Shown: positions 758 to 27,755 of the stretch, in pieces | How positions within the stretch are numbered: the stretch's first letter is position 1 | Layout of the letters: each line of letters starts with the position of its first letter | Assembly (NCBI RefSeq): GCF_000298235.1 | Contig: NZ_BAHE01000020.1 | Span: 62,001-126,000, forward strand | DNA length: 64,000 bases | Direction: 5' to 3' | Origin: Gordonia namibiensis NBRC 108229 | GTDB taxonomy: Bacteria; Actinomycetota; Actinomycetes; Mycobacteriales; Mycobacteriaceae | Made by a program: the position numbers and the translations under genes | Notes under the pieces: model-generated | Told to the model about the DNA's origin: nothing | What the model saw: the letters and a program-made list of their open reading frames with translations, nothing else | Databases searched by the model: none

Positions 758-3700
758 CTAGTTGCCGATCGCCCGCATCGGTCCCGGCGTCCAGAGGCCG
801 TTGTGGGTCTCGGTCGTGACGATCAGCTTCGCGTCCTTCTGCGGCAGGATCGGGGTGAGGCCCTGGAGCGAGCCCCAGTCCTTCGCCCAGTCGTTGCGCA
901 GATACGACGGGTAGACGCGACCGCGCAGTTCGTTCTCGATGATGCCGAGCGGACCACCGGCGTCGCCGGACATCCAGCGCTGCGAGTTCACCCGCTCGCC
1001 CTCACGGTCGGGGGAGATCCGCCAGACCGGGGTCTCGAGGACGCCGTTCTTGACCTGAGCGGGCCGCTGGCACGGGAACGCCAGTCCGGCCTCCCAGTCG
1101 ATGAGCACCGGCTCCTCGCTGCCCACGAGGGAGTTCAGCGACTCCATCGACGACACCCGCGGCGGGGTCACCGCGAGCCACTGATCGCGCAGCGGGGAGG
1201 TGTCCTCGGCGAGTACGCGGACCACGGAGGCGCCCGGAGGGGCCTGATCGAGCGGGAAACGCAGGTTGCGCCACTCGGGTGCACCACCGATGTCGAGCGG
1301 GATCATCTGACCGGCGGGGGCGACCGTGCCGTCCGGTGCGACGCGGCCGAACTGCAGCCGCACCTTCTGGCCCGGCCGGACCACGGCGAGGTCGTCGATG
1401 TACTCGACGTAGCCGGCGACCGACATGGTGATCAGCGGCTGGGCGTCGGAACGGCCCTCGGGCAGCTGGTACCAGTCGGAGGTGAGGCTTCCCGTCCCGG
1501 TCGGGGAGTTGTAGGTGCCCAGCACCGGGGTCTTCGACGGCGACAGTCCGAAGGGCAGCTTCACCGTCGAGCCGTTGACGCCGGCCTGTGCGGTGCGTCC
1601 GCCGCTGGTGTCGGTCGTCGACGACGTGGTGTCGTCGGAGCTGCTGCCATCCTCGGTCGGATCGGTCTGCGTGCGATCGACCTCGGCGGTCGAGGTGCCC
1701 GCGGAGTCGTCGGACTCCTCGGTGTCCTCGGACAGATCCGACGCGACGCCGTTGGGATCGAAGCCCACCAGACCGGCACCCGCGAGAGCTGCGCCCGGCG
1801 ACGGATTGTTCTGTCCGGCAACACGGGCCGGGGTCAGAAGTCCGGCGGTCGGATCGTTCTCCACGAGCACGGCGTCGGCGAGCGCACACGGTTCGCCCTT
1901 GAGAGCGTTCACGTTCGAGCTCAGCCACGACCACGAATTACGTTGTGTCCAGTCGGCTTTCGCGAACGAGACCAGGGTGAACAACAGCATGATCGCCGAC
2001 ACGATGATGATCGACGGGCTCCGCAGGCGGGAGAACAGCGTCTTCGACGACCCGGCACGGACCGCCTCGTCGACGTAGTCGTCCCGGAAGTGCTGCCAGA
2101 GGCCGAGCAGGGTCAGGGCGACGGCGACGGCGAGGATGCCGGTCCACAGCGGGATGCCCTTGACGTCGGGAACGGCGTCGCGCCACGGGATTCCGTAGCT
2201 GCCGACGTACCACCACTGGTTGCGTCCGGAGAACGCGAGGGCGAGCACGTAGGCGCAGGCGGCCGCGAACAGCGTGCGGTTTCGGCGCCGCCGCATGATC
2301 GTGCGGTCGGCACACGCGGTCGCCACCGCGGCGAGCGCACCGCCGATCCCCGCGTACACGCCCATCTGGTGGGTCCACTTGGTCGGCAGGAAGGCCATCA
2401 GCACAACCGAACCCGCGACCATGGCGAGCAGGCGCCAGGTGGGCGCGGTCGCGATCCCCGGCAGACGACGCCGGTTGAGCAGCATGATCACCACGAGGAT
2501 GAAGCATGTGAACACGATCAGGACACCGAAACGTCGGGCGATCCCGCCGTCCGCGGTCGGGTTCATCAGCATGTAGTAGCGCATCGGCTCTTCCCACCAC
2601 TTGTTGGTGGGACCGACCTGACCGTTCACCGACACCGCTTCCAGGATCGGGGCGAGCGGCTGGTCGGCGAAGATCTCGAACATCACCGCGAGACCCGCGG
2701 CCAGGATGGGCAGCAGCAGTGGGAGTGCTCCATCGCGCTTGCGGCGCACCATGAACCGCTTGAGTAGCGGGCGGATACCCGCGACCAGGGCGATCGCCGC
2801 GATGACACCGGTCGGGTGGATCGTCAGGGTGAACGCCGCCGAGATGATGGCGACGGCCAGCGGGAAGAACCGGCCGGAGGCGATGGCCCGTTCCACGCAG
2901 ACCCACGTGAACAGGGTGCCGAGTGCGATCAGCGGTTCGACACGCAGACCGTTGTTGTACGGCATCCACACGGCGAGGAAGACCAGGGCGGCCGCCCAGA
3001 TCGCGGGCGTCGACTCACGGACCGCGCGACCCAGACGCGGGATCGCGGCACGGGAGATCAGCCACCAGGACGCCATCGCGAACATGAACGGCAGCAGGCG
3101 GAGCCACGGGGTGGCCGTGCTGATGTCCATCCACACCGACAGGTACTGGTAGTGCCAGCCGAACGGATCCTGCGGCACACCGAAGTAGCGGTAGTAGTTG
3201 TCGAGATAACCGGCCTCGCGGGCGATCCGGCCCACCGTCACCTGGTATCCGTCGTCGGCGGTGTTGCCACCGACGAACAGCCAGATCCCCAGGATCAGCG
3301 CGACGAACCCGTCGACCGGGCGTACCCGCCACCAGCCGGCGGGGAAGATCTTGTGGTGTCCGCGGGCGTCACGGGCGTCGAGAACCGCCAGGGCGGCCAG
3401 CGACAGGATGGTCGACGCCACGCCCAGGACCAGCAGCCAGAACTTGAGAGTCGTGGGGGTGGAGACGAATCGGGTGTCGATGGTCGATCGGAACGACAGC
3501 CCCTCGGTGGACACGTTCGACGGCAGTCCCGAGTAGACGCCGATGATCTGCGGGCGCGCATTCGGATCCCGGAGATCGAACTCGTGGATCGCGCCGTCGG
3601 TCTCGGGGACGCCCTGGATCGAGCCGCGGCTGCCGTCGGTGTCGGCGTCGACGACGATCCGGCAGTCGGGCGAGTTCTGCGCGGCTGCTCGAGGAGTGTT

Positions 3701-4120
3701 GAGCAGCACCACATTTCGCTGGACGACCTGCAGGTTGTCCGCGGTGGCGCGGATGAACAGGCCGACCTTTCCGGCTTCCGCGCCGCCCTCGGGCACCGTC
3801 GACAGCAGGACGCCGCCGTTGCGCGGGAGCGATGCACCCAGCGCACACGGAACGGAGACCTCCATCGACACCGGCACGAACGAGACGTTCGGCGCGGCGA
3901 CGTTGGCGACCGAACCCTGTTGCGGCCAGACGAGTTCGGACTTCGTGTAGTCGACCGGCAGGAACGGGCTCAGCAGCGCGAGCAGGATGCCGAGCGCGCC
4001 CGCCGCCATCGCGACGATGCGTGCCCTGCCCGCATTGCGTTCGGAGAAACTCTGCTCCCGTCGTGTGGGCGGCGGGTCGTCGTGCTCCGGGTCGATGGGA
4101 GCGTCAACGCGGTCAGTCAT
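758..4120 (-). CDS. embB2: Arabinosyltransferase, EmbB-type, second copy
   Basis: GT53 arabinosyltransferase of 1120 aa that adds arabinofuranose from decaprenyl-phospho-arabinose to arabinogalactan arabinan, in the plasma membrane. An N-terminal membrane segment (about residues 33-55) precedes a periplasmic domain, then the multi-pass GT-C core and a soluble carbohydrate-binding C-terminus ending LWTPGPMR, as in EmbB. The catalytic acidic pair of the DDGY motif is D289-D290. The residue aligned with M. tuberculosis EmbB Met306 is V296, and the one aligned with Ile303 is Q293. A Ser/Thr/Asp-rich stretch (nucleotides about 1584-1746) precedes the GVNGSTVKLPFGL motif. Its ATG overlaps the upstream embA2 stop by 8 nt, so the pair is probably translationally coupled. 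Paralog of 9780-13106. Confidence 0.93.
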   Translation of the reverse strand: MTDRVDAPIDPEHDDPPPTRREQSFSERNAGRARIVAMAAGALGILLALLSPFLPVDYTKSELVWPQQGSVANVAAPNVSFVPVSMEVSVPCALGASLPRNGGVLLSTVPEGGAEAGKVGLFIRATADNLQVVQRNVVLLNTPRAAAQNSPDCRIVVDADTDGSRGSIQGVPETDGAIHEFDLRDPNARPQIIGVYSGLPSNVSTEGLSFRSTIDTRFVSTPTTLKFWLLVLGVASTILSLAALAVLDARDARGHHKIFPAGWWRVRPVDGFVALILGIWLFVGGNTADDGYQVTVGRIAREAGYLDNYYRYFGVPQDPFGWHYQYLSVWMDISTATPWLRLLPFMFAMASWWLISRAAIPRLGRAVRESTPAIWAAALVFLAVWMPYNNGLRVEPLIALGTLFTWVCVERAIASGRFFPLAVAIISAAFTLTIHPTGVIAAIALVAGIRPLLKRFMVRRKRDGALPLLLPILAAGLAVMFEIFADQPLAPILEAVSVNGQVGPTNKWWEEPMRYYMLMNPTADGGIARRFGVLIVFTCFILVVIMLLNRRRLPGIATAPTWRLLAMVAGSVVLMAFLPTKWTHQMGVYAGIGGALAAVATACADRTIMRRRRNRTLFAAACAYVLALAFSGRNQWWYVGSYGIPWRDAVPDVKGIPLWTGILAVAVALTLLGLWQHFRDDYVDEAVRAGSSKTLFSRLRSPSIIIVSAIMLLFTLVSFAKADWTQRNSWSWLSSNVNALKGEPCALADAVLVENDPTAGLLTPARVAGQNNPSPGAALAGAGLVGFDPNGVASDLSEDTEESDDSAGTSTAEVDRTQTDPTEDGSSSDDTTSSTTDTSGGRTAQAGVNGSTVKLPFGLSPSKTPVLGTYNSPTGTGSLTSDWYQLPEGRSDAQPLITMSVAGYVEYIDDLAVVRPGQKVRLQFGRVAPDGTVAPAGQMIPLDIGGAPEWRNLRFPLDQAPPGASVVRVLAEDTSPLRDQWLAVTPPRVSSMESLNSLVGSEEPVLIDWEAGLAFPCQRPAQVKNGVLETPVWRISPDREGERVNSQRWMSGDAGGPLGIIENELRGRVYPSYLRNDWAKDWGSLQGLTPILPQKDAKLIVTTETHNGLWTPGPMRAIGN

Positions 4121-7100
4121 CTTCGGGCACCACCCTGATCGGGCCGGGTCGTGACCATCCCCATGTGGTGGCCGACCCGGTCATCACGTCCGCCGGCCGC
4201 GCCTGCGGCACCAGCGGGTTGAGTCGCTGCAGGTTGCCCCACTCGCGATACCAGTCGTTGTCGAGATATGTCGCCACCGTCGTCGGCCGGGTCAGTGCCT
4301 CGACCGTCGTCAGCAGGCCGCCGTCCTCGGCGGCCATCCAGGTCTTGGACTGCGAATTGGCGATCCAGGACTCCGGCAGGATCCGCCAGTCCGGGACGTC
4401 GAAGACACCCTCGTGGGCGGTCATCGGCCGCTGGCACGGGAACCAGGCGCCGGCGGCGAAGTCGATGAGAACCGGATCGGTCGAACCGACCACCTGTTGC
4501 AGGGTCTCCAGGACCGGGGCGCGCGGCGGCGTGATCGCGAGCCACTGGTCGGCGTCGAGGTTGTTGTCCTTGGCGACGAGACGCATCACGGTCGCCTCGG
4601 TTGGCACACGGTCCATCGGGATGCGGAGGTTGCGCCACGGACGGTTGGTGCGCTCGGCGTCGATCGGGACGGCCGGTGCGCCGACCTCGACGAACTGGCC
4701 GTCGACCTCGCGGCCGAACTCGACCTGCAGCTGCTGGCCGAAGATCGGGACACCGTCGCGGTCGTAGGTGAACACGGCGCCCGCGGCGGTGACGACGATC
4801 AGCGGCGAGGCGTTCCGGTCCGGGAGGCGGTACCAGCCGGTGGTCAGCGTCGCCTGTCCGTCGCTGGTCTCGTGACTGCCCATGACCGGCGTGGTGGCCG
4901 GGTCGAGGCCGTACGGGAGCGCCGCGGTGCTGCCGTTGACCCCGCGCGGGCCCTCGCCGCCGGCGGTGCCGGGGTTGGAGCCGTAGACGATGAAGGTCTT
5001 GGACAGGTCCGCGGAGGTGTTCATCGCACCGGGCTTCTGGGCGCCGGCCTGCGGTGTCAGGTCGGGCTTCACGCCGTTCGGGCTGAAGCCGTGCGAGTCA
5101 CCTTCCAGGGTCTTCGACGCCGATCCGCCGTCCGCCGGGGCGAGCGTGCCCTTGTTGGGGTCTGGCTCGACGAGGACCGCGTCGGCCATCGCGCACGTAT
5201 TGCCGCGCAGGGAGTCGAGGTTGGCCGAGAGCACGGTGAACGTATCGGCCCGGCTGACGGCGGCCTTGGCGAAGACCGCGAGCTCGCAGACGACGATGAG
5301 GACGGCGATGACCGCGATCGGCGCCGAGGCGACACCGATGCGCCACCCGGCCGGGGCGGCACCGCGCTCGTGGGCCAGACCGGTCTCGTCGACGTAGTCC
5401 ATGCGCAGGTGCTGCCAGACGGCGAACACGAGTGCGACGACGGCCAGCGCGAGCAGCACCGTCGAGACCTGCATCCCGGCGACGACCGGTGCCTTGTCGA
5501 ACCAGGCGATGCCGAAGTTGTACGGCCACGGCCACGCGTTCTTGCCGGCCGCGGCGGCGGCGCACGCCACGAGCAGTCCGGCGATCAGGATCGACAAATT
5601 GCGCAGTGTCCGGCTCGCGGCCTGGCCGATCGCGACACAGGCGACGGCGGCCAGTGCGGCGCCGAGGCCGGCGAAGATGCCGAACTGGATCGTCCACTTG
5701 GTCGGCGTGAACGACAGCAGCAGGATCGTCAGCAGTGATGCGCCCAGGACGCGCCACACCGCGCCGGGATCGACCCCGTCGATCCGCTTGCGACGCAACA
5801 TGATCGCGAGCACGAGGAACATGGACACGGCGAACAGCAGCACCGGGATACGACGTGCGAGTGCACCGTCGGTGTGGTTCACGGCCAGGAAGTAGTAGCG
5901 CAGCAGCTCCTGGTACCAGGCCAGGGTGGGCCCGACCGAGTAGCGGATGCGGATCGCCTCGAAGACCGTGGCGAGGGTCTGGTCGCGGAAGACGACGATG
6001 ACGACGAGCGCACCTGCACCGAGGACGGGCGCGAGGAGCGGCAGCAGACCGTTCTCGCGGCGGCGGCGGACGAGGATGCGCAGCAACGGGCGGGCGCTGG
6101 CGATCAGCAGTGCCAGTGCGACGAGACCGTGCGGGGCCAGAGCGAGCGTCAGCAGGGCGGTCAGCGCGGCGAGGGCCGCGGGCAGCATCCGGCGCGTCGA
6201 GACCGTGACCTCGACCGCCCACCAGGTGAGGAGCGTGCCGAGCACGATGATGCCCTCACTGCGCAGGCCCGAACACATGGGCAGCCAGAACGCCAGGAAC
6301 ACCGCTGCACCGGTCAGCATGGCCCACTGGGACCGGCGGACGGCGCCGCCCAGTCGGGGCAGCAGGACCCGGCTGAGGATGAACCAGGCCGCCAGCCCGG
6401 CGATCAGCGACGGCAGACGCATCCACAGGCCGGTGGTCGAGATCGTCGACCAGTAGGCGAGGAAGTTGTAGTACCAGTCGAACGGCGCCTCGGGGATGCC
6501 GTAGAAGCGGTAGTAGTCGGCCAGGTAGCCCGCGTCCGCGGCGTTGCGGCCCATGTTGAGGATGTAACCGTCATCGGGCGACCCGGCACCCAGGAAGTGC
6601 CACACGACGAGCGTCAGGGTGACACCGATGTCGGTGGGCGTCGGACGCAGCACCTTTCCCCAGCGGAGCTTGCCGCCCACCCGGCGGTGGTAGCCGTGGA
6701 TGCGGTCCAGGCGGCCGACCGCGATCAGCGCGACGACCGCCGCGATGACGCCGACGATCATGACCAGCCACTTGATGACCGACGGCGACGAGTCGAAGCG
6801 GTCGTCGATCTCGATCTTCACGTCGATGCCCGAAGCGCGGACCTGCTCGGTGGTCAGACCCGTGAAAACACCTGCGATCTGCGGGTTCGACGAAGGCTCG
6901 GCCAGACCCACGTCGCCACCGCCGGCGCTCGCGGCACCCGGCGGCAGGCCGACGAACCGGGCGCCGGTCGTGGTGGTGTCGGAGAAGATACGCAGTTCGT
7001 CGCATCCCGACAGAGCCGAACGCGGAACCGAGGCCAGGGTCTTGTTGCGGACCGACACCGAGACGTTCGAACCATCGGCAATGACGAAGAGACCGTTCTC

Positions 7101-7463
7101 ACGCGCCTTCGTGGCGCCCGAGGGCATCGTCGACAGCACCGTCGTGGACGCATCACCCGGCGTGGCCGCCAGCGCCCGGCACGGGATGGTGATCTGCACG
7201 TCGCGTGCGGTCTGCGCGACCAGCGGTGCGGTGACCGACGCCGACTCCGCGCCCAGCTCCTGGCCTTGCGGCCACGTGATCGTCGCCGTCGACGTGCTGA
7301 CCGGCAGGAACGGGGTCAACACACCGGCGGCGAGGGCGACCAGTCCGGCGACCGCGGCCACGATCGCCACGGTGCGCGAGGAACGGTCGGAAGACCGGTC
7401 TACGGGGGTATCGCCGCCGACGGTGGGCTCGTCTGATTCGGACACTCCAGGCGACTTCGGCAC
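4113..7463 (-). CDS. embA2: Arabinosyltransferase, EmbA-type, second copy
   Basis: GT53 arabinosyltransferase of 1116 aa, partner of the EmbB-type gene it overlaps. EmbA/EmbB pairs are known to work together on the terminal hexa-arabinofuranoside of arabinogalactan. EmbA-type marks are WPQGQELGAES after the first membrane segment, the CSGLRSEG motif (B and C types have NNGLRPEP) and the C-terminal GWSRPGPIR. The catalytic DDGY motif starts at D297; the position aligned with EmbB Met306 is Met (M304). The start is GTG at 7463 with no Shine-Dalgarno; a TACGAT hexamer lies 6 nt before it, suggesting a leaderless transcript. The sequence resembles embA1 (13099-16422) closely enough to call it a paralog. 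Confidence 0.93.
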   Translation of the reverse strand: MPKSPGVSESDEPTVGGDTPVDRSSDRSSRTVAIVAAVAGLVALAAGVLTPFLPVSTSTATITWPQGQELGAESASVTAPLVAQTARDVQITIPCRALAATPGDASTTVLSTMPSGATKARENGLFVIADGSNVSVSVRNKTLASVPRSALSGCDELRIFSDTTTTGARFVGLPPGAASAGGGDVGLAEPSSNPQIAGVFTGLTTEQVRASGIDVKIEIDDRFDSSPSVIKWLVMIVGVIAAVVALIAVGRLDRIHGYHRRVGGKLRWGKVLRPTPTDIGVTLTLVVWHFLGAGSPDDGYILNMGRNAADAGYLADYYRFYGIPEAPFDWYYNFLAYWSTISTTGLWMRLPSLIAGLAAWFILSRVLLPRLGGAVRRSQWAMLTGAAVFLAFWLPMCSGLRSEGIIVLGTLLTWWAVEVTVSTRRMLPAALAALTALLTLALAPHGLVALALLIASARPLLRILVRRRRENGLLPLLAPVLGAGALVVIVVFRDQTLATVFEAIRIRYSVGPTLAWYQELLRYYFLAVNHTDGALARRIPVLLFAVSMFLVLAIMLRRKRIDGVDPGAVWRVLGASLLTILLLSFTPTKWTIQFGIFAGLGAALAAVACVAIGQAASRTLRNLSILIAGLLVACAAAAAGKNAWPWPYNFGIAWFDKAPVVAGMQVSTVLLALAVVALVFAVWQHLRMDYVDETGLAHERGAAPAGWRIGVASAPIAVIAVLIVVCELAVFAKAAVSRADTFTVLSANLDSLRGNTCAMADAVLVEPDPNKGTLAPADGGSASKTLEGDSHGFSPNGVKPDLTPQAGAQKPGAMNTSADLSKTFIVYGSNPGTAGGEGPRGVNGSTAALPYGLDPATTPVMGSHETSDGQATLTTGWYRLPDRNASPLIVVTAAGAVFTYDRDGVPIFGQQLQVEFGREVDGQFVEVGAPAVPIDAERTNRPWRNLRIPMDRVPTEATVMRLVAKDNNLDADQWLAITPPRAPVLETLQQVVGSTDPVLIDFAAGAWFPCQRPMTAHEGVFDVPDWRILPESWIANSQSKTWMAAEDGGLLTTVEALTRPTTVATYLDNDWYREWGNLQRLNPLVPQARPADVMTGSATTWGWSRPGPIRVVPEDD

Positions 7464-7475
7464 AGGCGCATCGTA
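7464..7475 (-). promoter_or_regulatory. Putative leaderless promoter of embA2 (-10 TACGAT)
   Basis: On the minus strand TACGAT (7475-7470) is followed by 6 nt and then the GTG start at 7463. This spacing puts the likely transcription start at or next to the start codon. No -35 was assigned. Confidence 0.5.
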
Positions 7476-7506
7476 GTCAGCGATGCTGTGACAATCCCAA
7501 ATCCTG

Positions 7507-7598
7507 CTGCTCCCTGAGGAGGCCCGGAGCTTGCGGAGGGCTGTCGGACTCCTGCTCCCTGAGGAGGCCCGGAGCTTGCGGAGGGCTGTCTCGAAGGG
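7507..7598. repeat. Dispersed REP-like repeat, two tandem units
   Basis: Two identical 39-base units (7507-7545 and 7552-7590, period 45) share the core CCCGGAGCTTGCGGAGGG and are followed by TCGAAGGGTCA, which runs into the stop codon of the EAL/DICT gene. The same core occurs at 16526-16558 and 34020-34112, also directly after stop codons. Confidence 0.8.
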
Positions 7599-8807
7599 TC
7601 AGGCGAACCGGGCCAGGATCGAGTGCACGGCCTGCGTGACGGTCATCCGGTCGTAGGTCTGGACGAACTCGAAGGTGCGCTCCAGGTCGGGGCCGGCGTC
7701 GTGCTGGTCGCGCGCGGAGAGCAGAGCGGCGAAGTGCGGGCCGAGCACCGCGACGTTCCACTCGTTGATCAGGTCGTCTTCGGGGGACAGCGGTGCGCGG
7801 TGCACGTTGCCGTCCCGAACGTCGGGAAGCCCGACGCCGTAGACGCCGGCCAGGCCGGTCTTGGTCGACATCTCCCGCCACCGCTTGGCGGTGCGGGGGG
7901 TGAAGTGTTCGGCGAACTGGAACGTGCCCAGCACGATGGCGGCGCCCCCGATCGCGGCCTGATGCTCCAGGGCCTTGCTCATCTCGATGAGCAGACGCTT
8001 GTTGCCCATGCGCGGCTCGATGGAGGTGGACGCGATGCGATACGGCGTCGACTTCTCCGAGTCCGGGGTGGTCCACACCGGCATGTCGGGTAGCGGGACG
8101 ATGGTCCGCGACGCGAGGGTCGAGGGGTCGGACACCGGCGGGTACAGGTCGCCGATACCGAAGGCCGCTCCCATGGTCTGCGCGGTGACGCGCGCCGACT
8201 CGTCGTCGACGCCCTCGGCGATGACCACGGCGTGACTGCGCTCGGTGTGCGCGGCGAGAGCGTGGGCGAGCTGTGCGGCATCGGCGGTCGCCTGCTTGGC
8301 GAGGAGCTCGGCGCCGGTGACGATGATGTCGGGTTCGACGAGCGACAGCAGAGTGGCGGCGTGTTCGCTGCGAACCAGGCCGTCGACGCAGATGATCTTG
8401 CCCGCGGCTCGGGCTCGCGCCACCCGGGCGAGCGTGCGTTGGGGACTGCGTTCGACGGAGTCGGGCACGATCACCATGACGTGGCGCTCGAGTGTCTGGG
8501 TGGTCTCGTCGTCGAGATTGTCGATGAGTTCCAGATCGAGGTTGACCAGGAGCGGGAGGATCTTGGCCAGCGACTGCGCGCGGGGGTGGGTGGCCATCTT
8601 CCGCTTGCGCTCGTCCAGCACCGGATGCTCTTCGACGAGCCGCGCGGCCCGTTTGAGGGCGGCGGCGGTGGCGAGGCGGGTCCCGGCGGGACCACGGAGC
8701 TGCAGTTCGACGGCGGCCAACGCTCCGTCCGACAGCCGGCAGACCGGCGCGAACTGCATGTGGAGCTCCAGATCGTTGAACAGCGTGAATGATCGTGTTT
8801 CGGCCAC
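7599..8807 (-). CDS. Degenerate EAL domain plus DICT sensory domain protein
   Basis: A 402-aa cytoplasmic protein. The N-terminal about 230 residues follow the EAL (c-di-GMP phosphodiesterase) fold: the signature is VELQLRG in place of EALLR, and AEGVDDE is kept. However, the DDFG metal motif reads VDGLVR and the catalytic KID lysine region reads IIVTG, so hydrolysis is probably lost and a binding or scaffold role is more likely. The C-terminal about 140 residues resemble the DICT sensory domain (INEWNVAVLGPHFAALL). I chose GTG at 8807 because GGGGAGG lies 5 nt upstream; an ATG at 8858 is possible but has no such site. It lies between the two embAB pairs on the same strand. A link to cell-wall control is only inferred from position. 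Confidence 0.75.
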   Translation of the reverse strand: MAETRSFTLFNDLELHMQFAPVCRLSDGALAAVELQLRGPAGTRLATAAALKRAARLVEEHPVLDERKRKMATHPRAQSLAKILPLLVNLDLELIDNLDDETTQTLERHVMVIVPDSVERSPQRTLARVARARAAGKIICVDGLVRSEHAATLLSLVEPDIIVTGAELLAKQATADAAQLAHALAAHTERSHAVVIAEGVDDESARVTAQTMGAAFGIGDLYPPVSDPSTLASRTIVPLPDMPVWTTPDSEKSTPYRIASTSIEPRMGNKRLLIEMSKALEHQAAIGGAAIVLGTFQFAEHFTPRTAKRWREMSTKTGLAGVYGVGLPDVRDGNVHRAPLSPEDDLINEWNVAVLGPHFAALLSARDQHDAGPDLERTFEFVQTYDRMTVTQAVHSILARFA

Positions 8808-8984
8808 ACGTACCTCCCCGTCAGAGCGAGGGCGCCCCGATCGATCCGGCGGACGCAATTGTCTTCACATCCTGTTCACGGCCTAAGCCTGTGCTCAGAG
8901 TAACAGTGCGTCGTCGTCCGGACGTGCGAGCGCACCCGCACCACATCGAGAGGTCAACTCTCGCAGTGTGTCCGGGTGGGAGGA

Positions 8985-9033
8985 GAAACCGCGGCCGCGA
9001 GTTGGTGGTGGGGGCGGTCGCGACCGCGGTTTC
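8985..9033. terminator. 15-bp stem hairpin after dps
   Basis: Arms 8985-8999 and 9019-9033 pair at 14 of 15 positions (GAAACCGCGG core) around a 19-nt loop, about 40 nt downstream of the dps stop on the minus strand. It probably ends the dps transcript. The rest of 8808-9073 shows only the upstream region of the EAL/DICT gene. Confidence 0.5.
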
Positions 9034-9073
9034 GGTGTGAGGCCGGGGGACGGCCCCACACCGGGTCTGACGA

Positions 9074-9761: not shown

Positions 9762-9779
9762 AGCACAGGTCAGAACCGG

Positions 9780-12700: not shown

Positions 12701-13106
12701 CGCGATCGGTGTTGAGGAGCACCACATTGCGGTCGATCATCGTCAGCGTGTCGGCGGTGGCGCGGACGAAGAGGCCGCGGGCGGAATCGTCCTGCCCGCC
12801 CTCCGGTGTCGTCGACAGGAGGACCCCACCCTGCGCGGGCAGGCGGGCGGCCAGCGAACACGGCACCGACATGTCCATGTCGATCGGGACGAAGGCCACC
12901 AGCGGCGCCGCCACATCCGAGACCGAATCGCCCTGCGGCCACTCGAGTTCGGCGGTGGTCTGGTTCACCGGCAGGATCGGCGTGACGATCGCGAGCAGGA
13001 AACCCAGCAGACCCGTGACGACCGCGACGATCTTCGCGGTGCGGTGGTCGCGCCCGGGTCGCTCATCGGCCTTCGGGGTCGTGCTCGTGGGGTTGGGTTC
13101 ACTCAT
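9780..13106 (-). CDS. embB: Arabinosyltransferase, EmbB-type, first copy
   Basis: GT53 arabinosyltransferase of 1108 aa in the plasma membrane, the ethambutol-target type. It shows an N-terminal membrane segment (about residues 25-47), a DDGY catalytic motif at D283-D284, the EmbB-like segment RYYYLILPTADG, FTPTKWTHHFGVYAG, and a C-terminal carbohydrate-binding region ending GLYDPAPMR. The residue aligned with M. tuberculosis Met306 is V290, and N287 aligns with Ile303. A Ser/Thr/Asp/Gln-rich linker (nucleotides about 10605-10748) precedes GINGSTVRLPFGL. The ATG overlaps the embA1 stop by 8 nt, the same geometry as embA2-embB2. I call this the ancestral-position copy because it follows embC and embA directly, as in mycobacteria. 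Confidence 0.94.
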   Translation of the reverse strand: MSEPNPTSTTPKADERPGRDHRTAKIVAVVTGLLGFLLAIVTPILPVNQTTAELEWPQGDSVSDVAAPLVAFVPIDMDMSVPCSLAARLPAQGGVLLSTTPEGGQDDSARGLFVRATADTLTMIDRNVVLLNTDRAAAQANPNCRIVMHADGEGVDGRFEGLPAPESADGGLNEFAIPDHEMRPQIVGVYSDLPADVSRDGLSLRATIDTRYVTSPTPVKLAAIVVGIVMTILSLIALGVLDSRDGRAHKRFLPTGWWTIRPPDVAVFAILAFWWFAGANTSDDGYNFTVGRITSEAGYADNYFRYFGVPQDPFGWHFQVISAMSHISVAAPFMRLPAFLLGLLGWWLISREVIPRLGRAVRNSTPAVWSAAFVFLAIWLPFNNGLRPEPAEAVGALLTWCCVERAIATRRLLPYAVAVVTAAFTLALAPGGLMAVAALLAGIRPIVKTLVSRRRRDGLLPMLAPILAAGTAVLYQIFFDQPLAPLIAGNKVASDVGPTLEWWQEPIRYYYLILPTADGTLARRFGVLAMILCLFVVLLRLLRREHPNGVARAPIWRLIAVTLGTMFFIAFTPTKWTHHFGVYAGIAAGIAAAAGAMMAPAVLRSRRNRTFFAAAVLAITGISFAGTNGWWFVGSYGVPWWDRPPAVGGINVAWFILLAAVVTALAGLWFHFRDDFVDEQTRTRGGDRWYSKLKFSPLPVISGLMVLFMVASFLKGAYEQRDSWSWMKSNARALTGNSCGLANDVLVEADPTAGLLPPAAVNGRPAPGVAQALSGSDSTGFTPNGVPDKLSVDATESNDSATTSAQNTAQTGAGADESADSSSAQGGTEGGQGARGINGSTVRLPFGLNPAATPVLGSYGSPSGTASLTTDWYQLPERSDDAPLLTMAVAGSVEAVDGIGVVHAGQKVVAQFGRVGADGRVVRTGQMFPIDIGEVPTWRNLRFPLADSPAQSTVVRILVEDTAAASSEWVAITPPRVSRLATLDEVVGRTDPVFIDWLPGLVFPCQQPMKVRHGVLEVPKWRIMPDAEATRKNSQTWMSGTAGGPLGITEAMLRPTLLPTYLRNNWGRDWGGLQRFTEIIPAPPAEIELGEARRSGLYDPAPMRSSGY

Positions 13107-16100
13107 GGGATTCGGGCTCCACCCTGATCGAGCCGGCGCGTGACCAGCCCCATTGCGTCGTCTGTGCGGTGTCGATCTGTGCGTTCGGTGCGTCGGGTAC
13201 CAGTGGCGTCAGCTTCTCCAGGGCGCCCCATTCACGAACCCAGTCGTCCTTGAGGTAGGTCGACACGGCCTGGGCCGAGGTCGTCGCCTCCGAGATACCG
13301 AGCAGGCCGCCGTCGACCCCGGCCTGCCAGGTCTTGGACTGCGAGTTGGTCAGCGGGTAGTCACCCAGGATCCGCCACTGCGGCACCTGGGCGACGCCGT
13401 TCGAGACACCCATCGGCTGTTGGCACGGGAAGTGCGAGGCCACCCCGAAGTCGATCAAGGTCGGCGCCGTCGTCCCGACGACCTCCTGCAGGGTCTGCAG
13501 CTGCGGCGCGCGCGGAGGCGTGATCCCGATGAACTGCTTGTCGCCGAGATTGTTGTCCTGCAACGACAGTCGCATCACGGTCGCAGCCGGCGGGGCGGCC
13601 GCCATCGGCACCCGCATGTTGCGCCACGGACGGTTGAGGATCACCGGCCCGGGGTCGAAGGGCAGGATGTCCGGGCCGACCTGCTCGAACTCACCATCCG
13701 GGCCGGGCCGGCCGAACTGGACGACCATCTTCTGCCCGAAGTTGCGCACCCCGAAGGTGTCGATGGTCGAGACGGCGCCGGCGGTGCTGAACACGAGCAG
13801 CGGCGACGCGGCCCGGTCGGCGGGCAGGTCGTACCAACCCGTCGTGAGGCGCGCCTCGCCGTTGTACCCGTAGCTGCCGAGTACGGGCGTCGTGGCGGGG
13901 TCGAGTCCGAAGGGAAGCTTGGCGTTGGACCCGTTGACGGTTTCGGGGCCGCGGCCGCCGGTGGTCCCGGAGCCGAGTCCGCCGGTGATGGCGAACGGGC
14001 GCGCCATGCTCGCCGACACGTTCATCTGGCCCGGCCGCTGGCTCCCCGGTTCGGGTTGCAGGTCGCCGGGGATGCCGTTGGGGGAGAAGCCGACCGGGTT
14101 CTCCCCGCGCAGTGCCTCGGTCGCCGACGCGCCGCCGGCGGGGGTGAGCATGCCCGCGTTCGGATCGACTTCGACGAGCACCTCGTCGGCGAGTCCACAG
14201 GGGTTGCCGCGCAGGGTGTTCAGGTTCTCGGTGAGCACCGTCGGCGCCGGATGGCGGGTGACGGCGGCCTTGACGAACAGCAGCATCTCGACGACGACGA
14301 GGAGTCCGGCGATCACCGCGATCGGCGAGGACGCGAGGAACAGGCGACGCCGGTCTGCGCGGGTCTCACCGGGGCCCGTGTCGCTGTGCGCGAGACCGCG
14401 ATTGGTGACGTAATCGAGTCGGAGATGCTGCCAGACCGCCAGGGCGGCAGCCAGGACGGCGAGGATCAGGAACAGCGTGGACGCCCCGTAGCCGGCGATG
14501 ACGGGCGCACGGTCGAACCAGGAGATGCCGTACTCGTAGGCGAACGGCCACGAGTTGTAACCGGCCATCGCCGCGGCCATCGCGAACAACAGACCCGAGA
14601 CGAAGACGGTCAGGTTGCGGGCGGACCGTGCCGCCGATTGGGCGACGGCGAGGGTTGCGGCTGCGGAGATCGCCGCCGCGAGGCCGGCGAGGACGCCGAA
14701 CTGGATCGTCCACTTCGTCGGGGTGAACACGAACAGCAGCAGGGTCACACCCACTGCGCCGACGAGACGCCACACCGGACCGGGGTCCACGCCGCGAATC
14801 CGGGTGCGCCGCAGCATCACCGCGACCACGACGAACAGTCCGGCGAGAAGAAGGAGCAGGGGTACGCGGCGGGTCAGCGAACCGTCGTCGGTGACGACCG
14901 AGATGAAGTAGTAGCGCAGGAACTCCTGGTGCCAGGAGATCACCGGGCCGACGGTGTAGCGGAGCTTGATGGCCTCGAGCACCGTCGCGAGCGTCTGATC
15001 CCGGAACACGATGACCAGCACGACCATCCCGGCGGCGGCGATCGGGGCGACGAGCGCCGCAGTCGAGGTCCATCTCGAACCGCCGAACTCGTTGCGTCGT
15101 CGGAGCAGGATGTGCAGCAGCGAACGGGCGGCGACGAGCAGGATCGCGACGCCGACGACGCCGTGCGGAGCCAGCGCGAGGGTGAACCCGGCGAGCGCGG
15201 CGGCGAGCGCCGCCGGCAGGAGGCGTCGGGTGGAGATGGCGTATTCGGCTGCCCACCAGGTCAACAGGGAGCCGAGGACGATGATGCCCTCGCTGCGCAG
15301 GCCGCTGCAGAACGGCAGCCAGAACGCGGTGAACGTCAGGGCGGCGGCCCAGGTGGCCCAGGAACTGCGACGCACCGCCGGGCCCAGACGCGGAAGCAGC
15401 ACCCGGCTGAGCACGAACCACGACACGAGGCCGGCGACGAGGGCCGGGATGTGCATCCACAGGATCGACGGCGAGATCGACGACCACGTCGAGAGGAAGC
15501 TGTAATACCAGTCGAACGGCGCCTCGGGGATGCCGTAGAAGCGGTAGTAGTTCGCCAGATAGCCGAACCCGTCGGCGGTGCGGCCCATGTTGAGGATGTA
15601 GCCGTCGTCGGGCGAACCGGCCCCGAGCAACAGCCAGACCAGCAGGATCGCCGTCACGACCAGGTCGGCGGCGCGCGGCTTCAGGGAGTGCCACCAGACG
15701 CGGGTCCGGGCCCCGATCCGGCGGTGATAGCCCTGGATACGGTCGAGGAGGGCCAGGGCGACCAGTGCCACGATCACCGAGATCACGGCGAGGACCATCA
15801 CGATGATCTTCAGGACCGTCGGCGAGGACTCGTACCGGTTGTCGACGACGATCGAGACCGACATACCGGCGGCGGCCGCGGCGCGGGCCTGCTCGGGACT
15901 CAGCTCGCTGAAGATGCCGGCGACCTGCGGGCGCTTCTCGGGCGGTAAGACCGTCGAGTCGCCGAGGCCGACGAACTGGGCGCCGGGTCCGCTCGGGGCG
16001 GAGAAGATGTGCAGCTCGCGGCAACGGTCTAGATCGGCGCGGGGCGCGGTGGCCGCGACGCTGTTGCGGAAGGTGACCGTGACGGCCTGATCGGACTTCG

Positions 16101-16422
16101 TCACCCACAGCGACGAACCCTTCGACTTCGGCGCGCTCACCGGCATCGTCGACAGGACGACGCCGTTGCGAGCACTCGCCAGCGTGGAACACGGGATGCG
16201 GGCGTCGAGCGTCTGCGGGGTCTGCGCGATGAGTGGCGCCATCACCGACGACGTCTCGGCGGCGAGCTGCTGACCTGCGGGCCAGGTGATGTCGGCGTCG
16301 GTGGCCTTCACCGGCAGCAGCGGCGTCAGAGCGCACAGCACGACGCCGAGAACACCCGCGACGATCGCGATCAGACGAGCGGTATGTGCGGAAACACGGG
16401 ACGTCGGAGCTGTCACAGGCAC
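13099..16422 (-). CDS. embA: Arabinosyltransferase, EmbA-type, first copy
   Basis: GT53 arabinosyltransferase, 1107 aa from the GTG at 16422. It carries WPAGQQLAAETSSV, the DDGY motif (D272 from this start), CSGLRSEG, FTPTKWTIQFGV and the C-terminal GWSRAGSIR typical of EmbA; the position aligned with Met306 of EmbB is Met. An ATG at 16467 in the same frame would add 15 residues. I prefer the GTG because a TACGAT hexamer lies exactly 8 nt before it, inside the extra coding part, and because 15 residues before the first hydrophobic segment matches EmbA of mycobacteria. It sits about 136 bp after embC, with a repeat element between, and seems to have its own promoter as well as any read-through. 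Confidence 0.92.
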   Translation of the reverse strand: MPVTAPTSRVSAHTARLIAIVAGVLGVVLCALTPLLPVKATDADITWPAGQQLAAETSSVMAPLIAQTPQTLDARIPCSTLASARNGVVLSTMPVSAPKSKGSSLWVTKSDQAVTVTFRNSVAATAPRADLDRCRELHIFSAPSGPGAQFVGLGDSTVLPPEKRPQVAGIFSELSPEQARAAAAAGMSVSIVVDNRYESSPTVLKIIVMVLAVISVIVALVALALLDRIQGYHRRIGARTRVWWHSLKPRAADLVVTAILLVWLLLGAGSPDDGYILNMGRTADGFGYLANYYRFYGIPEAPFDWYYSFLSTWSSISPSILWMHIPALVAGLVSWFVLSRVLLPRLGPAVRRSSWATWAAALTFTAFWLPFCSGLRSEGIIVLGSLLTWWAAEYAISTRRLLPAALAAALAGFTLALAPHGVVGVAILLVAARSLLHILLRRRNEFGGSRWTSTAALVAPIAAAGMVVLVIVFRDQTLATVLEAIKLRYTVGPVISWHQEFLRYYFISVVTDDGSLTRRVPLLLLLAGLFVVVAVMLRRTRIRGVDPGPVWRLVGAVGVTLLLFVFTPTKWTIQFGVLAGLAAAISAAATLAVAQSAARSARNLTVFVSGLLFAMAAAMAGYNSWPFAYEYGISWFDRAPVIAGYGASTLFLILAVLAAALAVWQHLRLDYVTNRGLAHSDTGPGETRADRRRLFLASSPIAVIAGLLVVVEMLLFVKAAVTRHPAPTVLTENLNTLRGNPCGLADEVLVEVDPNAGMLTPAGGASATEALRGENPVGFSPNGIPGDLQPEPGSQRPGQMNVSASMARPFAITGGLGSGTTGGRGPETVNGSNAKLPFGLDPATTPVLGSYGYNGEARLTTGWYDLPADRAASPLLVFSTAGAVSTIDTFGVRNFGQKMVVQFGRPGPDGEFEQVGPDILPFDPGPVILNRPWRNMRVPMAAAPPAATVMRLSLQDNNLGDKQFIGITPPRAPQLQTLQEVVGTTAPTLIDFGVASHFPCQQPMGVSNGVAQVPQWRILGDYPLTNSQSKTWQAGVDGGLLGISEATTSAQAVSTYLKDDWVREWGALEKLTPLVPDAPNAQIDTAQTTQWGWSRAGSIRVEPESHE

Positions 16423-16436
16423 GGTGCTTGATCGTA
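16423..16436 (-). promoter_or_regulatory. Putative leaderless promoter of embA1 (-10 TACGAT)
   Basis: TACGAT (16436-16431 on the minus strand) is followed by 8 nt and the GTG at 16422. It lies inside the reading frame of the longer annotated start, which argues for the shorter one. Confidence 0.5.
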
Positions 16437-16492
16437 TGCGACCGACACCCGGCCACCTAGCGCCCACCCTTCGTGGCTCGCTCCGCTCGCAC

Positions 16493-16525
16493 CTCAGGGA
16501 GCAGACACCGGCTTCGCTCCCTGAG
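16493..16525. terminator. Hairpin inside the repeat downstream of embC
   Basis: CTCAGGGAGC (16493-16502) and GCTCCCTGAG (16516-16525) are perfect 10-base arms with a 13-nt loop, about 35 nt after the embC stop. It may attenuate read-through into embA1. Confidence 0.5.
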
Positions 16526-16558
16526 TAGCCCGGAGCTTGCGAAGGGCGTATCGAAGGG
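16498..16558. repeat. Dispersed REP-like repeat after embC
   Basis: It contains CCCTGAGTAGCCCGGAGCTT, then GCGAAGGGCGTATCGAAGGG, ending at the embC stop codon (16559). It is the same family as 7507-7598 and 34020-34112. Confidence 0.75.
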
Positions 16559-19500
16559 TCAGTGCCGGAGCGGCGCCGGGCTCCACAGACCGCTGCGGGT
16601 CTCCGTGCCGGTGTCGATGTCGGCGAGGCTGTCCACGCCGCCGTACGGCTCGTAGCGCTCCAGCGCGCCCCAGTCGCGGCCGATGTCGGCCATCAGATAC
16701 GTCGGCAGGGCGGTGGGCTGCTGCGACACGTCGATCCAGCCGAGCGGGCCGCCGCCGTAGTAGTTCTGCCATGCCGAGACCGCGGCCGCCAGATCCGACC
16801 CCGGCTTGATCCGCCACTGGGGGATCTCGGCGACGCCCGCATCGTGGGTGAACGGCCGCTGGCACGGGAAGGCCAGACCCGACGTCCAGTCCACGTGCAC
16901 CGGGTCGGTGCTGCCGACGACGTCCTGCAGCGTCCTCATCTGCGGGACACGCGGCGGGGTCAGGACGATGAAGCGGTCCTCGTTGAGGTTGTCGTCGGTG
17001 GCGACGATGCGGACCGCGGTGGTGTCCGCCGGCAGCTCGCTGGTGTTGTAGCGCAGGTTCCGCCAGGCCGGGCGTGGGCCGGGGTCGATGAGTTCGGTCT
17101 CGCCGGCGGCGGTGAGGTCGGCGTCCTTGGTGTCCGGTCCGATGGGGTCGGCGGTGTACTCGAGCATCACGTTCGGGTTGTCGTATTCGCCGGCCACCGA
17201 CATGGTCAGCAGCGGACGGTCGCGCCAGTCCTCCGGGAGGGCGTACCAGCCGGAGGTGAGCCGGGCCGGGACCTGGTCGAGCTTGGAGTAGCTACCCATG
17301 ACCGGAGTGGTGTTCGGGTCGAGGAAGAACGGCAACGCGGCGCTGCTGCCGTTGACCCCGGGTTCGGCCAGTTCACCGCCACCGGTGCCGCCGGGATTGG
17401 AGTTGACGATCTTCGGGTCGGCCCACACGTTGCCGGACAACACACCCAGCGAGCCCTCACTGGCCGTCGACGCCAGGTCCAGCGGCACACCGTCGGGGGA
17501 GAAGCCGACCGTCTTCGGCGAGGTCCCGGGTGCAGGGGCCGGTCCGCCCAGCGGGTTGCCCAGCGACCCGTCGACGGGCCGCAGCATGTCGCGGTTGGGG
17601 TCTCCTTCGACCCACACCTTGTCGGCCATGCCGCACGGCTTGCCGGCGAGCGCGGCCAGATTGGAGCGCGGCACCGAGTACGACGACGACTGGTGGATGC
17701 CGGCGAACACTGCGGTGACGATCTCGAAGACGACGACGGCCATCGCGAGATAGGCGAGCGGTGCGGCGGCCATCGACGCGGACACGCGTCGGTACCAACG
17801 CCGGTCGGAGGTGTCCGCCCGCCTGGTGGGATCCCCGTCGGGGGAGTGTGGGTCGGTGCCGGTGAACGGTTCCCGGAAGTGGAACCACAGCGCGAGGAGG
17901 AGTAGTGCCAGCGCGGCGTACAGGAACACGCTGCCGAGCATCACCCCGCCGATCTTCACCTGCTCGTAGGCCCAGGGCATGCCCCACGCGGAGTAGTAGT
18001 AATAGGAGTTCGGCGCGGTGAACGCCAACCCGCCGATGAACAGGACGAGTGCACAGAACAGAGTGCGGTTGCGTCGTGAGTGCATCGACTGCTGGCTGGC
18101 GGCGATCGCGGCGATGGCGGCCAGCGCGGCAGCGATACCGGCGAAGACGCCGAAGTGGTGGGTCCACTTGGTCGGCGTGAACATGAGGAACACCAGTGAG
18201 GCGAAGGTGATCGCGACGATGCGGCGGGTGGGTCCGATGGCGGTGCCAGGGATGCGGTTCTTGCGGATCAGAACCGCGGCGGAAACGACGAGTCCGAGGA
18301 TCATCGCGAGGACGGCGAAGCGCCGGGCGATGTCGCCGTCGGCGGAGAACGCGAACAGCAGCGAGTAGCGGCCCATCTCGTTGTACCAGTTCATCGAAGG
18401 CCCGAGTGCCGTCTTCATGCTCGATGCCTCGGAGAACGAGCGCAGGGTCAGGTTCGAGAACACCACGAAGGCGACGAAACTGCCGGCGGCCAGGATCGGG
18501 GCGATGAGCGCGACGTAGGACCACCTCAGCGCGCGGCGCGACGTCGAGTCGCCGGTGATGACCCGGGCGCGCTTGATCAGCGCCATGATCATCGGTCGGG
18601 CACCGGCGATCAGTGCGGCGACCGCGAGCAGGCCGGTCGGACCGGCGGCGAGGCTGAACGCGCCGACGGTGCAGGCCACCGCGGCGGGGAGCAATCGGCC
18701 GGTGGCGATGGCGCGTTCCACCGAGCACCAGGTGAGCAGCGCGCCGAGGCAGATGATCGGCTCGGGACGCAGACCGTTGTTGAACGGGAACCAGCAGGCC
18801 AGGAAGGTGAACGCGGCTGTCCAGGCCACCATCGGGCGGGTCACAGCAGCCCGGCCCAGCCGCGGGATCACCTCGTGACTCACGATGAGCCACACCAGGA
18901 TTCCGCAGGCGAGTGCCGGCAGGCGCATCCAGGGGCTGGCGACCGACACGTGGCTCAGCAGTCCGAAGACCTGGTAATACCAGCCGAACGGGGCCTCGGG
19001 CGCGCCGTACCAGCGGAAGTAATTCGCGGTGTAGTCGGTGTCCTGTGCGACCCGCGACATCGTCAGGAGGTAACCGTCGTCGGAGGTGTTGGGGCCGACG
19101 ATGTGCCACAGGATCAGTGCGCCGATCACCACATAGTCGCGCGAGTTGAGGCGCCACCAGCGGGCGGGGAAGATGCGACGGTGCTTGCGGCCGTCGGTTG
19201 CGTCGAGGGTGGCCAGCGCCGCGAGTGAGAGCAGCGTCGCGGCCACTCCGACGATGATGACGAGCCACTTGGAGAGGGTCGGCGCGGTGTTGTAGCGGGA
19301 GTCGACGGTAACATGTGCGTCGAGACCGTCGATCTCGGACGCGGGCCCGGACAGGTCGGTGAAGAGGCCGGTGACCTGCGGCCGCTGGTCGGGCGAGTTC
19401 TTGAAGGCCTCTTTGTCCTCGGTGGTCCCCTCGAGCGGTTCCCCGGCATCGTCGGTCATGCCGACGAATTCGGCGGTCACCGCGTCGGAATCGGCGTGGA

Positions 19501-19921
19501 CGACGATCTCGCGGCAGTCCTGTGCGCGCATGTCCTGGAGCCTGGCGGAGATCAGCGGGACATTACGGATGACCACCTCGACGCCTTGGCGGTCGGCGGG
19601 GGCATCGGCGGCACCCGTCTTACGGATGAAGAGGCCGCGTTCGGCGGATTTCTCCGCCTGCTTCGGCGTGGTCGACAGCACGACCGAACCGCCGGGTGGG
19701 AGGTCGTCGATGGCCGTGCACGGGATCGTGACGTCGAGGTCGACGGGCGTGTAGCCGATGAGCGGGGAGGCGACGGAACCGATCTGCCCGTTCTGGGGCC
19801 AGTTGATCTCCGCGGTCTTCTGCTCGACCGGCATCAGCGGGGTGGCGAGCGCGAGCAGGAACCCGAGCAGGCCGGTGACTATGGCGACGATCCTCGCTCG
19901 TCGAACGGTCTGCGCTGGCAC
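16559..19921 (-). CDS. embC: Arabinosyltransferase, EmbC-type
   Basis: GT53 arabinosyltransferase of 1120 aa. In mycobacteria EmbC elongates the arabinan of lipoarabinomannan; here the assignment rests on its place first in embC-embA-embB and on its sequence (C-terminal ETRSGLWSPAPLRH). The DDGY motif is at D281-D282, close to the catalytic D279 of M. tuberculosis EmbC; the following LLTMSRV keeps Met at the EmbB-306 position. Multi-pass GT-C core with FTPTKWTHHFGVFAG, then a C-terminal carbohydrate-binding region. The start is GTG at 19921 with TACCAT 8 nt upstream and no Shine-Dalgarno. It is divergent from aroQ across about 100 bp. Confidence 0.92.
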   Translation of the reverse strand: MPAQTVRRARIVAIVTGLLGFLLALATPLMPVEQKTAEINWPQNGQIGSVASPLIGYTPVDLDVTIPCTAIDDLPPGGSVVLSTTPKQAEKSAERGLFIRKTGAADAPADRQGVEVVIRNVPLISARLQDMRAQDCREIVVHADSDAVTAEFVGMTDDAGEPLEGTTEDKEAFKNSPDQRPQVTGLFTDLSGPASEIDGLDAHVTVDSRYNTAPTLSKWLVIIVGVAATLLSLAALATLDATDGRKHRRIFPARWWRLNSRDYVVIGALILWHIVGPNTSDDGYLLTMSRVAQDTDYTANYFRWYGAPEAPFGWYYQVFGLLSHVSVASPWMRLPALACGILVWLIVSHEVIPRLGRAAVTRPMVAWTAAFTFLACWFPFNNGLRPEPIICLGALLTWCSVERAIATGRLLPAAVACTVGAFSLAAGPTGLLAVAALIAGARPMIMALIKRARVITGDSTSRRALRWSYVALIAPILAAGSFVAFVVFSNLTLRSFSEASSMKTALGPSMNWYNEMGRYSLLFAFSADGDIARRFAVLAMILGLVVSAAVLIRKNRIPGTAIGPTRRIVAITFASLVFLMFTPTKWTHHFGVFAGIAAALAAIAAIAASQQSMHSRRNRTLFCALVLFIGGLAFTAPNSYYYYSAWGMPWAYEQVKIGGVMLGSVFLYAALALLLLALWFHFREPFTGTDPHSPDGDPTRRADTSDRRWYRRVSASMAAAPLAYLAMAVVVFEIVTAVFAGIHQSSSYSVPRSNLAALAGKPCGMADKVWVEGDPNRDMLRPVDGSLGNPLGGPAPAPGTSPKTVGFSPDGVPLDLASTASEGSLGVLSGNVWADPKIVNSNPGGTGGGELAEPGVNGSSAALPFFLDPNTTPVMGSYSKLDQVPARLTSGWYALPEDWRDRPLLTMSVAGEYDNPNVMLEYTADPIGPDTKDADLTAAGETELIDPGPRPAWRNLRYNTSELPADTTAVRIVATDDNLNEDRFIVLTPPRVPQMRTLQDVVGSTDPVHVDWTSGLAFPCQRPFTHDAGVAEIPQWRIKPGSDLAAAVSAWQNYYGGGPLGWIDVSQQPTALPTYLMADIGRDWGALERYEPYGGVDSLADIDTGTETRSGLWSPAPLRH

Positions 19922-27724: not shown

Positions 27725-27755
27725 CGCTCGCAATCGCAGTCGGCGTCGAGGGCTG

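What the first reader, a model, noticed from the sequence alone, without database searches (positions are those of the whole stretch)
758..19921. embAB present twice: embC-embA1-embB1 and a separate embA2-embB2
Five complete emb genes are visible. The two embA-embB pairs have the same gene order, the same 8-nt stop/start overlap, and type-specific motifs (EmbA: CSGLRSEG and GWSR-GxIR; EmbB: DPFGWH and PMR near the end). M. tuberculosis has one of each. A second pair may give altered arabinan branching or a condition-specific enzyme set. The second pair has its own probable promoter and is split from the first by Dps and EAL/DICT genes.
Basis: partly seen in the sequence, partly recalled or inferred. 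Interest (0 to 1): 0.72.

Follow-up and report, generated by a model that had tools for sequence, protein, structure and literature searches.

The report
Second EmbA-EmbB pair in Gordonia
This Gordonia genome, like most sampled species of its genus, carries two separate pairs of the enzymes that build the arabinose polymer of the cell wall; the extra pair looks old, intact and under selection, and has changed around the active site of one partner, but what it makes is not known.

Summary
In detail: five intact emb genes lie at the stated coordinates. It is not peculiar to this strain: 48 of 57 genomes of the genus code (own included) have five emb genes, 9 have three; the nearest named relatives are Gordonia. 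Pair 2 is probably not a recent copy. EmbA1/A2 share 55% and EmbB1/B2 54% identity. In a concatenated tree pair 2 falls outside Gordonia pair 1 plus the pairs of neighbouring genera; one genus-specific duplication is rejected (AU p=0.0006; EmbB alone 0.03; EmbA alone not, 0.29). Pair 2 keeps the catalytic residues and shows purifying selection (dN/dS 0.06-0.21). EmbA2 varies with EmbB2, EmbA1 with EmbB1. EmbB2 has 23 fixed differences from EmbB1, 9 around the catalytic aspartates; EmbA2 only 4 from EmbA1. Pair 2 sits in four arrangements, and its tree conflicts with rpoB and pair 1 (AU p=1e-6): an accessory two-gene cassette. Best reading: a second, working EmbA-EmbB arabinosyltransferase of unknown product.

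The parts
16559..19921 (-). embC (GTG start), 1120 aa
   Evidence: Pfam PF17689+PF04602+PF14896; best PDB match EmbC 7bve; EmbC clade of 37 g1 genomes, SH 1.0
13099..16467 (-). embA1 (GTG start), 1122 aa
   Evidence: best PDB match EmbA 7bvc_A
9780..13106 (-). embB1 (ATG start), 1108 aa
   Evidence: EmbB by tree; best PDB matches EmbC 965 bits, EmbB 943 bits
13099..13106 (-). 8-nt embA1/embB1 stop-start overlap
   Evidence: 18 of 44 pair-1 junctions in the genus have it, with ATG
9074..9613 (-). Dps/ferritin-like gene between the two pairs
   Evidence: PF00210 E 1.4e-23
7599..8858 (-). EAL + DICT gene between the two pairs
   Evidence: PF00563 E 1e-10 and PF10069 E 3.9e-12
7507..7584 (-). two tandem copies of a dispersed intergenic repeat in the spacer upstream of embA2
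   Evidence: 11 copies at up to 3 mismatches in the genome, reversed control 0
4113..7463 (-). embA2 (GTG start), 1116 aa
   Evidence: best PDB match EmbA 7bvc_A 912 bits; 55% to EmbA1
758..4120 (-). embB2 (ATG start), 1120 aa
   Evidence: 54% to EmbB1
4113..4120 (-). 8-nt embA2/embB2 stop-start overlap
   Evidence: 33 of 34 pair-2 junctions in the genus have it, with ATG or GTG
3251..3256 (-). codons of EmbB2 Asp289-Asp290, equivalent to catalytic D285-D286 of M. smegmatis EmbB
   Evidence: alignment to 7bvc_B; coordinates; both Asp in 35 of 35 EmbB2
25721..27733 (-). aftA, arabinosyltransferase gene (context)
   Evidence: PF12250/PF12249; one copy in 10 of 10 genomes searched

Best explanation
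embA2-embB2 encodes a second EmbA-EmbB heterodimer: a polytopic GT-C arabinosyltransferase that, like pair 1, takes arabinofuranose from decaprenyl-phosphate-arabinose and extends wall arabinan after AftA has primed it (roles of AftA and of Emb from general knowledge and the two cited papers). Pair 2 is an old, separately evolving paralogous pair, kept in most sampled Gordonia as an accessory two-gene cassette that has moved about the chromosome and whose history inside the genus is not simply vertical. Its EmbB subunit has diverged around the active site, so the likely role is the same chemistry with a different acceptor, linkage pattern or setting, not a spare dose of pair 1. Shown here: intactness, separate clade (old with moderate support), purifying selection, co-inheritance of A2 with B2, EmbB2-specific residues. 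Inferred: dimerisation, donor, catalysis. Not known: acceptor and product.
For: Intact genes with all three Emb domains. Catalytic D285/D286 and R389/E391 equivalents kept: EmbB2 35 of 35 at all four; EmbA2 34 of 35 at D285 (one Glu), 35 of 35 at the rest (roles from passages of PMC7305291 and PMC7341804). dN/dS 0.058-0.211 for pair 2 and 0.062-0.214 for pair 1 in 8 species pairs (EmbA1 missing for one). EmbA2 and EmbB2 found together in 35 of 35 fetched five-gene genomes. Distance correlation with EmbC removed: A2-B2 0.80, A1-B1 0.65, across pairs -0.33 to 0.17 (31 genomes). Old split: AU against one genus-specific duplication p=0.00063 concatenated, 0.030 EmbB. EmbB1/EmbB2 fixed differences 23, 9 of them in EmbB2 280-350 (9 of 38 columns conserved in both copies, against 14 of 226 elsewhere, Fisher p=0.0019); EmbA1/EmbA2 only 4. 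Four arrangements of pair 2.
Against: EmbA alone does not reject a genus-specific duplication (p=0.294); without genera g33 and g50 the concatenated test is marginal (0.045). Pair 2 has long stems, which could draw it outwards, and the tree tool warned of long branches (g33 EmbB; g49 with g50). The place of g33 differs between trees: for EmbA it is with EmbA1 in FastTree (0.655) but with pair 2 in the mixture-model trees (83-96). The 280-350 stretch was chosen after seeing the list. Of the 4 EmbA differences, 3 are changes on the EmbA1 side. The pair correlation partly reflects shared history of A2 and B2, so it does not show contact. No expression, biochemical or wall-composition data. Nine of 57 genomes of the genus live without pair 2, so it is dispensable in some species.
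Confidence: 0.7

Rival explanations
1. Dosage or redundancy: pair 2 does the same job as pair 1 and is kept only for enzyme amount or back-up.
For: Same catalytic residues; same strength of purifying selection; pair 2 absent from three separate places of the genus tree.
Against: 54-55% identity with no homogenised tract in 5 genomes tested; 23 fixed EmbB differences, concentrated near the active site; pair-2 types alpha and beta occur in the same clade but none of 35 fetched five-gene genomes holds both, while all 35 hold pair 2 beside a full three-gene set by count, which fits alpha and beta replacing each other but not pair 1 replacing pair 2.
Confidence: 0.2
2. Young duplication inside Gordonia with fast divergence of pair 2, so that its deep place in the tree is a long-branch effect.
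For: Pair-2 clade seen only in this genus; EmbA alone does not reject it (p=0.294); pair-2 stem is longer (EmbB2 0.51 against EmbB1 0.19).
Against: Concatenated p=0.00063 and 0.045 after dropping g33 and g50; EmbB p=0.030; site-mixture model used.
Confidence: 0.2
3. Pair 2 came into the Gordonia ancestor by horizontal transfer from a relative not sampled here.
For: All 9 g31, 8 g38 and the single g28, g33 and g36 genomes surveyed have three emb genes; uncertain grouping of pair 2 with g33 (SH 83-96; weak or absent); non-vertical history inside the genus.
Against: No donor lineage found; loss in a few neighbouring genera explains the same pattern.
Confidence: 0.3

Closest known systems
Mycobacterial EmbA-EmbB heterodimer (PDB 7bvc, 7bvf, 7bvg)
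   Same: Gene order embA-embB, three Emb domains, catalytic DD motif, Arg and Glu of the cavity.
   Different: A second, separately evolving pair beside the first; Gln and Val at the E313 and M292 equivalents of EmbB (in Gordonia EmbB1 as well as EmbB2); Gln at the H581 equivalent and several further residues only in EmbB2.
EmbC homodimer (PDB 7bve, 7bvh)
   Same: EmbB1 and EmbB2 match EmbC slightly better than EmbB in the PDB search.
   Different: Both fall in a clade with the EmbB of g49 and of the neighbouring genera, not in the EmbC clade, and lie next to an EmbA gene.
Extra emb genes of other genera
   Same: Copy number varies across the family: 0-6 by PF17689 in 401 genomes. The two domains disagree for some genomes (for example G083, 6 by PF17689 and 3 by PF04602).
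   Different: In the 43 other-genus genomes looked at, extra copies are mostly single genes outside the EmbA clade; genome G190 (g25) has an extra adjacent pair of its own, also outside the EmbA clade.

Membership tests
Emb arabinosyltransferase family | Arabino_trans_N, Arabinose_trans and EmbC C-terminal domains in one protein | tested here: met
   5 of 5 proteins
Emb arabinosyltransferase family | DDx catalytic motif and conserved Arg/Glu of the active-site cavity | tested here: met
   5 of 5 window proteins; 35 of 35 EmbB2; EmbA2 34 of 35 Asp (one Glu) at D285 and 35 of 35 at the other three
Emb arabinosyltransferase family | Homology to solved Emb structures over full length | tested here: met
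   best chain per protein 846-1036 bits
Emb arabinosyltransferase family | Transfer of arabinofuranose from decaprenyl-phosphate-arabinose | not testable with these tools
   needs enzyme assay
EmbA-EmbB heterodimer | EmbA-type and EmbB-type subunits encoded next to each other | tested here: met
   trees and position
EmbA-EmbB heterodimer | Partners co-inherited and co-varying | tested here: met
   A2-B2 partial correlation 0.80, A1-B1 0.65, cross -0.33 to 0.17 (31 genomes); does not prove contact
EmbA-EmbB heterodimer | Physical EmbA-EmbB complex with AcpM | not testable with these tools
   needs purification or structure
Recent gene duplicate within the genus | Copies are each other's nearest relatives within the genus | tested here: inconclusive
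   rejected by the concatenation (p=0.00063; 0.045 without g33, g50) and EmbB (0.030), not by EmbA (0.294)

The most novel reading that the evidence does not exclude
Gordonia builds a second kind of arabinan (different acceptor, branching or linkage) with a dedicated EmbA2-EmbB2 enzyme whose active site has diverged, and species swap alternative versions (alpha, mostly collinear; beta, inverted between embC and embA1) of this two-gene cassette, so that this part of the wall polymer varies between species as a surface antigen locus does.
Probability: 0.3. Interest if true: 0.68.

Novelty: new variant of a known kind. Interest (0 to 1): 0.42.

Why it matters
Emb proteins are the target of ethambutol and are known mainly from mycobacteria, with one EmbA-EmbB pair (general knowledge). 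A genus with two diverged pairs, and sister species that lack one, is a natural experiment on which residues set Emb acceptor choice. The comparison points to a short list of EmbB2-specific positions around the catalytic aspartates.

Tried and rejected
Gene conversion: no sign (sliding 60-aa windows in 5 genomes, best 82%). Recent copy: disfavoured, not excluded. Inactivated copy: no sign. Pair-2-specific loss of the Pro of the motif between the membrane part and the C-terminal domain: it is Asp in 35 of 35 EmbA2 and Pro in 41 of 44 EmbA1 rows, but 6 of 14 neighbouring-genus EmbA and the g33 EmbA lack it too, and no Gordonia EmbB1 or EmbC row has it, so it is not a clean mark of pair 2. Gln and Val at the E313 and M292 equivalents first looked like EmbB2 marks; EmbB1 has them as well (42 of 42) and so does neighbouring-genus EmbB (14 of 14 for both), so they are older than the split. 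Conserved partner gene near pair 2: apart from frames that overlap emb, no family was in all 12 remote-pair loci (about 6 kb on each side, less in L194, where the contig starts); a broad short-chain dehydrogenase family (F9) was linked in 5 of the 12 and in the window at 30% identity or more, which for such a family says little. Direction of exchange between alpha and beta pair 2: not settled; dropping either type removes most of the conflict and the base of the genus is poorly resolved. Promoter scan: nothing. NCBIfam gave nothing for the five Emb proteins. Papers: searches; I saw listings and abstract starts only, and none of those shown mentions a second emb pair in Gordonia (one search showed 15 of 68); most subscription journals are not held. 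No structure was predicted, since solved homologues exist.
Full report
Observation. Five complete emb ORFs lie on the - strand at the stated coordinates, each with the three Emb Pfam domains, and a search of the own genome gave only these five. The gene order is embC-embA1-embB1, dps, EAL/DICT, embA2-embB2. Both A/B junctions overlap by 8 nt. Among fetched genomes of the genus this overlap is close to fixed in pair 2 (33 of 34 junctions with ATG or GTG) and less common in pair 1 (18 of 44). Upstream lie aftA and two genes that I take for dprE2 and dprE1 (these two names are recalled, the Pfam hits are a short-chain dehydrogenase and an FAD/ALO oxidase).

How common it is. Among 57 genomes of the same genus code, own included, 48 hold five emb genes and 9 hold three; one further genome listed only has five. 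The nearest named records are Gordonia alkanivorans (96% to EmbA2), G. amicalis, G. paraffinivorans, G. lacunae and Gordonia sp. 'Campus'. All five of these loci show A1-B1-A2-B2. Three Williamsia loci, G. jinhuaensis and G. hirsuta show C-A-B in the stretch held. In 401 genomes of the family the count by PF17689 runs from 0 to 6; PF04602 gives other counts for some. The neighbouring genera by code (9 g31, 8 g38, one each of g28, g33, g36) all have three. AftA is single in 10 of 10 genomes of the genus searched.

Old or young. EmbA1/EmbA2 are 55% and EmbB1/EmbB2 54% identical in the window. In a FastTree of 295 Emb proteins (37 genomes of the genus and 40-odd of other genera, less rows under 700 aa), the 31 EmbA2 and the 31 EmbB2 each form one clade (1.0). 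Both lie outside a clade of the genus EmbA1 or EmbB1 with the single EmbA or EmbB of g28, g31, g36 and g38 (0.976 for A, 0.999 for B). With a site-mixture model, 17 of 44 fetched genomes of the genus, 9 of 14 neighbours and 6 others, the concatenated A+B tree keeps pair 2 outside. The EmbA tree alone leaves this fork open. Holding all genus rows as one clade costs 58 log units (AU p=0.00063); EmbB alone p=0.030; EmbA alone p=0.294; without g33 and g50 p=0.045. The tool warned of long branches among the outgroups. I read this as an old split, with moderate confidence. Three-gene species fall in separate places among five-gene ones: G003/G010/G035, G004/G007/G014 and G129 beside G343 and G019. 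If the genus ancestor had pair 2, it was lost at least three times. G283 and G352 were fetched but not put on these trees.

Not simply vertical. In 37 genomes pair 2 stands in four arrangements: collinear behind embB1 with a gap (9), directly behind embB1 (2), inverted between embC and embA1 (12), and elsewhere, tens of kb or more away or on another contig (8); six have none. Pair-2 sequences split into type alpha (13 genomes: all collinear and contiguous ones and G008/G016) and the rest, in which type beta (the 12 inverted ones) sits with the pair 2 of the other half of the genus. rpoB keeps alpha and beta species together (SH 95) and so does pair 1 (99/99). Forcing pair 2 to do so is rejected (AU p=1.1e-6); the reverse, forcing the alpha species together on pair 1, is borderline (p=0.051) (13 genomes). 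The alpha/beta label needs at least 2 changes on the C-A1-B1 tree. Exchange inside the genus, or hidden older paralogues with differential loss, both fit; the direction is open. None of the 35 fetched five-gene genomes keeps both types.

Function. The residues that PMC7305291 and PMC7341804 place in the M. smegmatis EmbB active site and that I tabulated as core (D285, D286, R389, E391; passages read) are kept in both pairs; the exception in pair 2 is a Glu for D285 in 1 of 35 EmbA2. A further active-site acid of that structure, E313, is Gln in both EmbB1 and EmbB2 of the genus, but Glu in its EmbC (43 of 43) and EmbA2 (35 of 35). dN/dS in eight species pairs is 0.06-0.21 for the four genes. 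Pairwise distances, with EmbC removed, correlate within pairs (A2-B2 0.80; A1-B1 0.65) and little across (-0.33 to 0.17) in 31 genomes. This shows that the pairs are inherited as units and fits two separate heterodimers, though shared history adds to it. EmbB2 differs from EmbB1 at 23 columns that are at least 95% fixed in each; at 17 of these the neighbouring genera have the EmbB1 state, so most changes were on the EmbB2 side. EmbA2 differs from EmbA1 at only 4, and at 3 of them EmbA1 is the changed one (G016 left out). Nine of the 23 lie in EmbB2 280-350, the stretch with the catalytic Asp289-Asp290, against 14 in the rest (Fisher p=0.0019; stretch picked after seeing the list). Outside it is Gln at the H581 equivalent, next to H580, in 35 of 35 EmbB2 and 0 of 42 EmbB1, and Ala for Trp at the W578 equivalent in 22 of 35 EmbB2 and 0 of 42 EmbB1. 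So the second pair most likely does the same chemistry with a changed active-site rim. What it acts on is unknown.

Neighbourhood. Apart from frames that overlap emb itself, no gene family is shared by all 12 remote pair-2 loci, so pair 2 looks like a two-gene cassette without a fixed partner. In the window the spacer before embA2 carries two tandem copies of a dispersed repeat (11 in the genome at up to 3 mismatches, reversed control 0). The promoter scan found nothing.

Verdict. The finding is real and is the common state of the genus. It is a new variant of a known enzyme kind, not a new kind. Of the papers shown by the searches (listings and abstract starts seen), none mentions a second emb pair in Gordonia.

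Noticed in passing
window 12237-12239 (EmbB1 Val290) and 3233-3235 (EmbB2 Val296): EmbB1 (42 of 42) and EmbB2 (35 of 35) of this genus, and EmbB of four neighbouring genera (14 of 14), naturally have Val where EmbB of g49 has Met (5 of 5), and Gln at the E313 equivalent. The Met position (M306 in M. tuberculosis) is the commonest ethambutol-resistance site there (PMC7305291, passage).
   Followed up: partly
window 7507-7584; G000:C46:15534-15695 and others: A GC-rich intergenic repeat with a 45-base period stands in tandem upstream of embA2 and at 9 further places in the genome; the reversed control found none.
   Followed up: partly
window 21435-24047: An 870-aa AMP-binding + carrier + thioesterase protein (single NRPS-like module) lies between the aftA/metallo-beta-lactamase-fold genes and embC.
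   Followed up: no
window 7599-8858: The EAL domain next to embA2 looks degenerate by eye in the translation; the motifs looked for are recalled and were not tested.
   Followed up: no
L036 3930-7135 (G016): EmbA1 of this draft genome is split over two overlapping frames while its pair 2 is intact; could be an assembly error.
   Followed up: no
L109 (G190:C1:125700-134900): A genome of another genus (g25) has an additional adjacent emb pair outside the EmbA clade.
   Followed up: no
L060 1565-8092 (G067): A 2176-aa stop-to-stop open frame covers an Emb protein in genus g29; not examined further.
   Followed up: no
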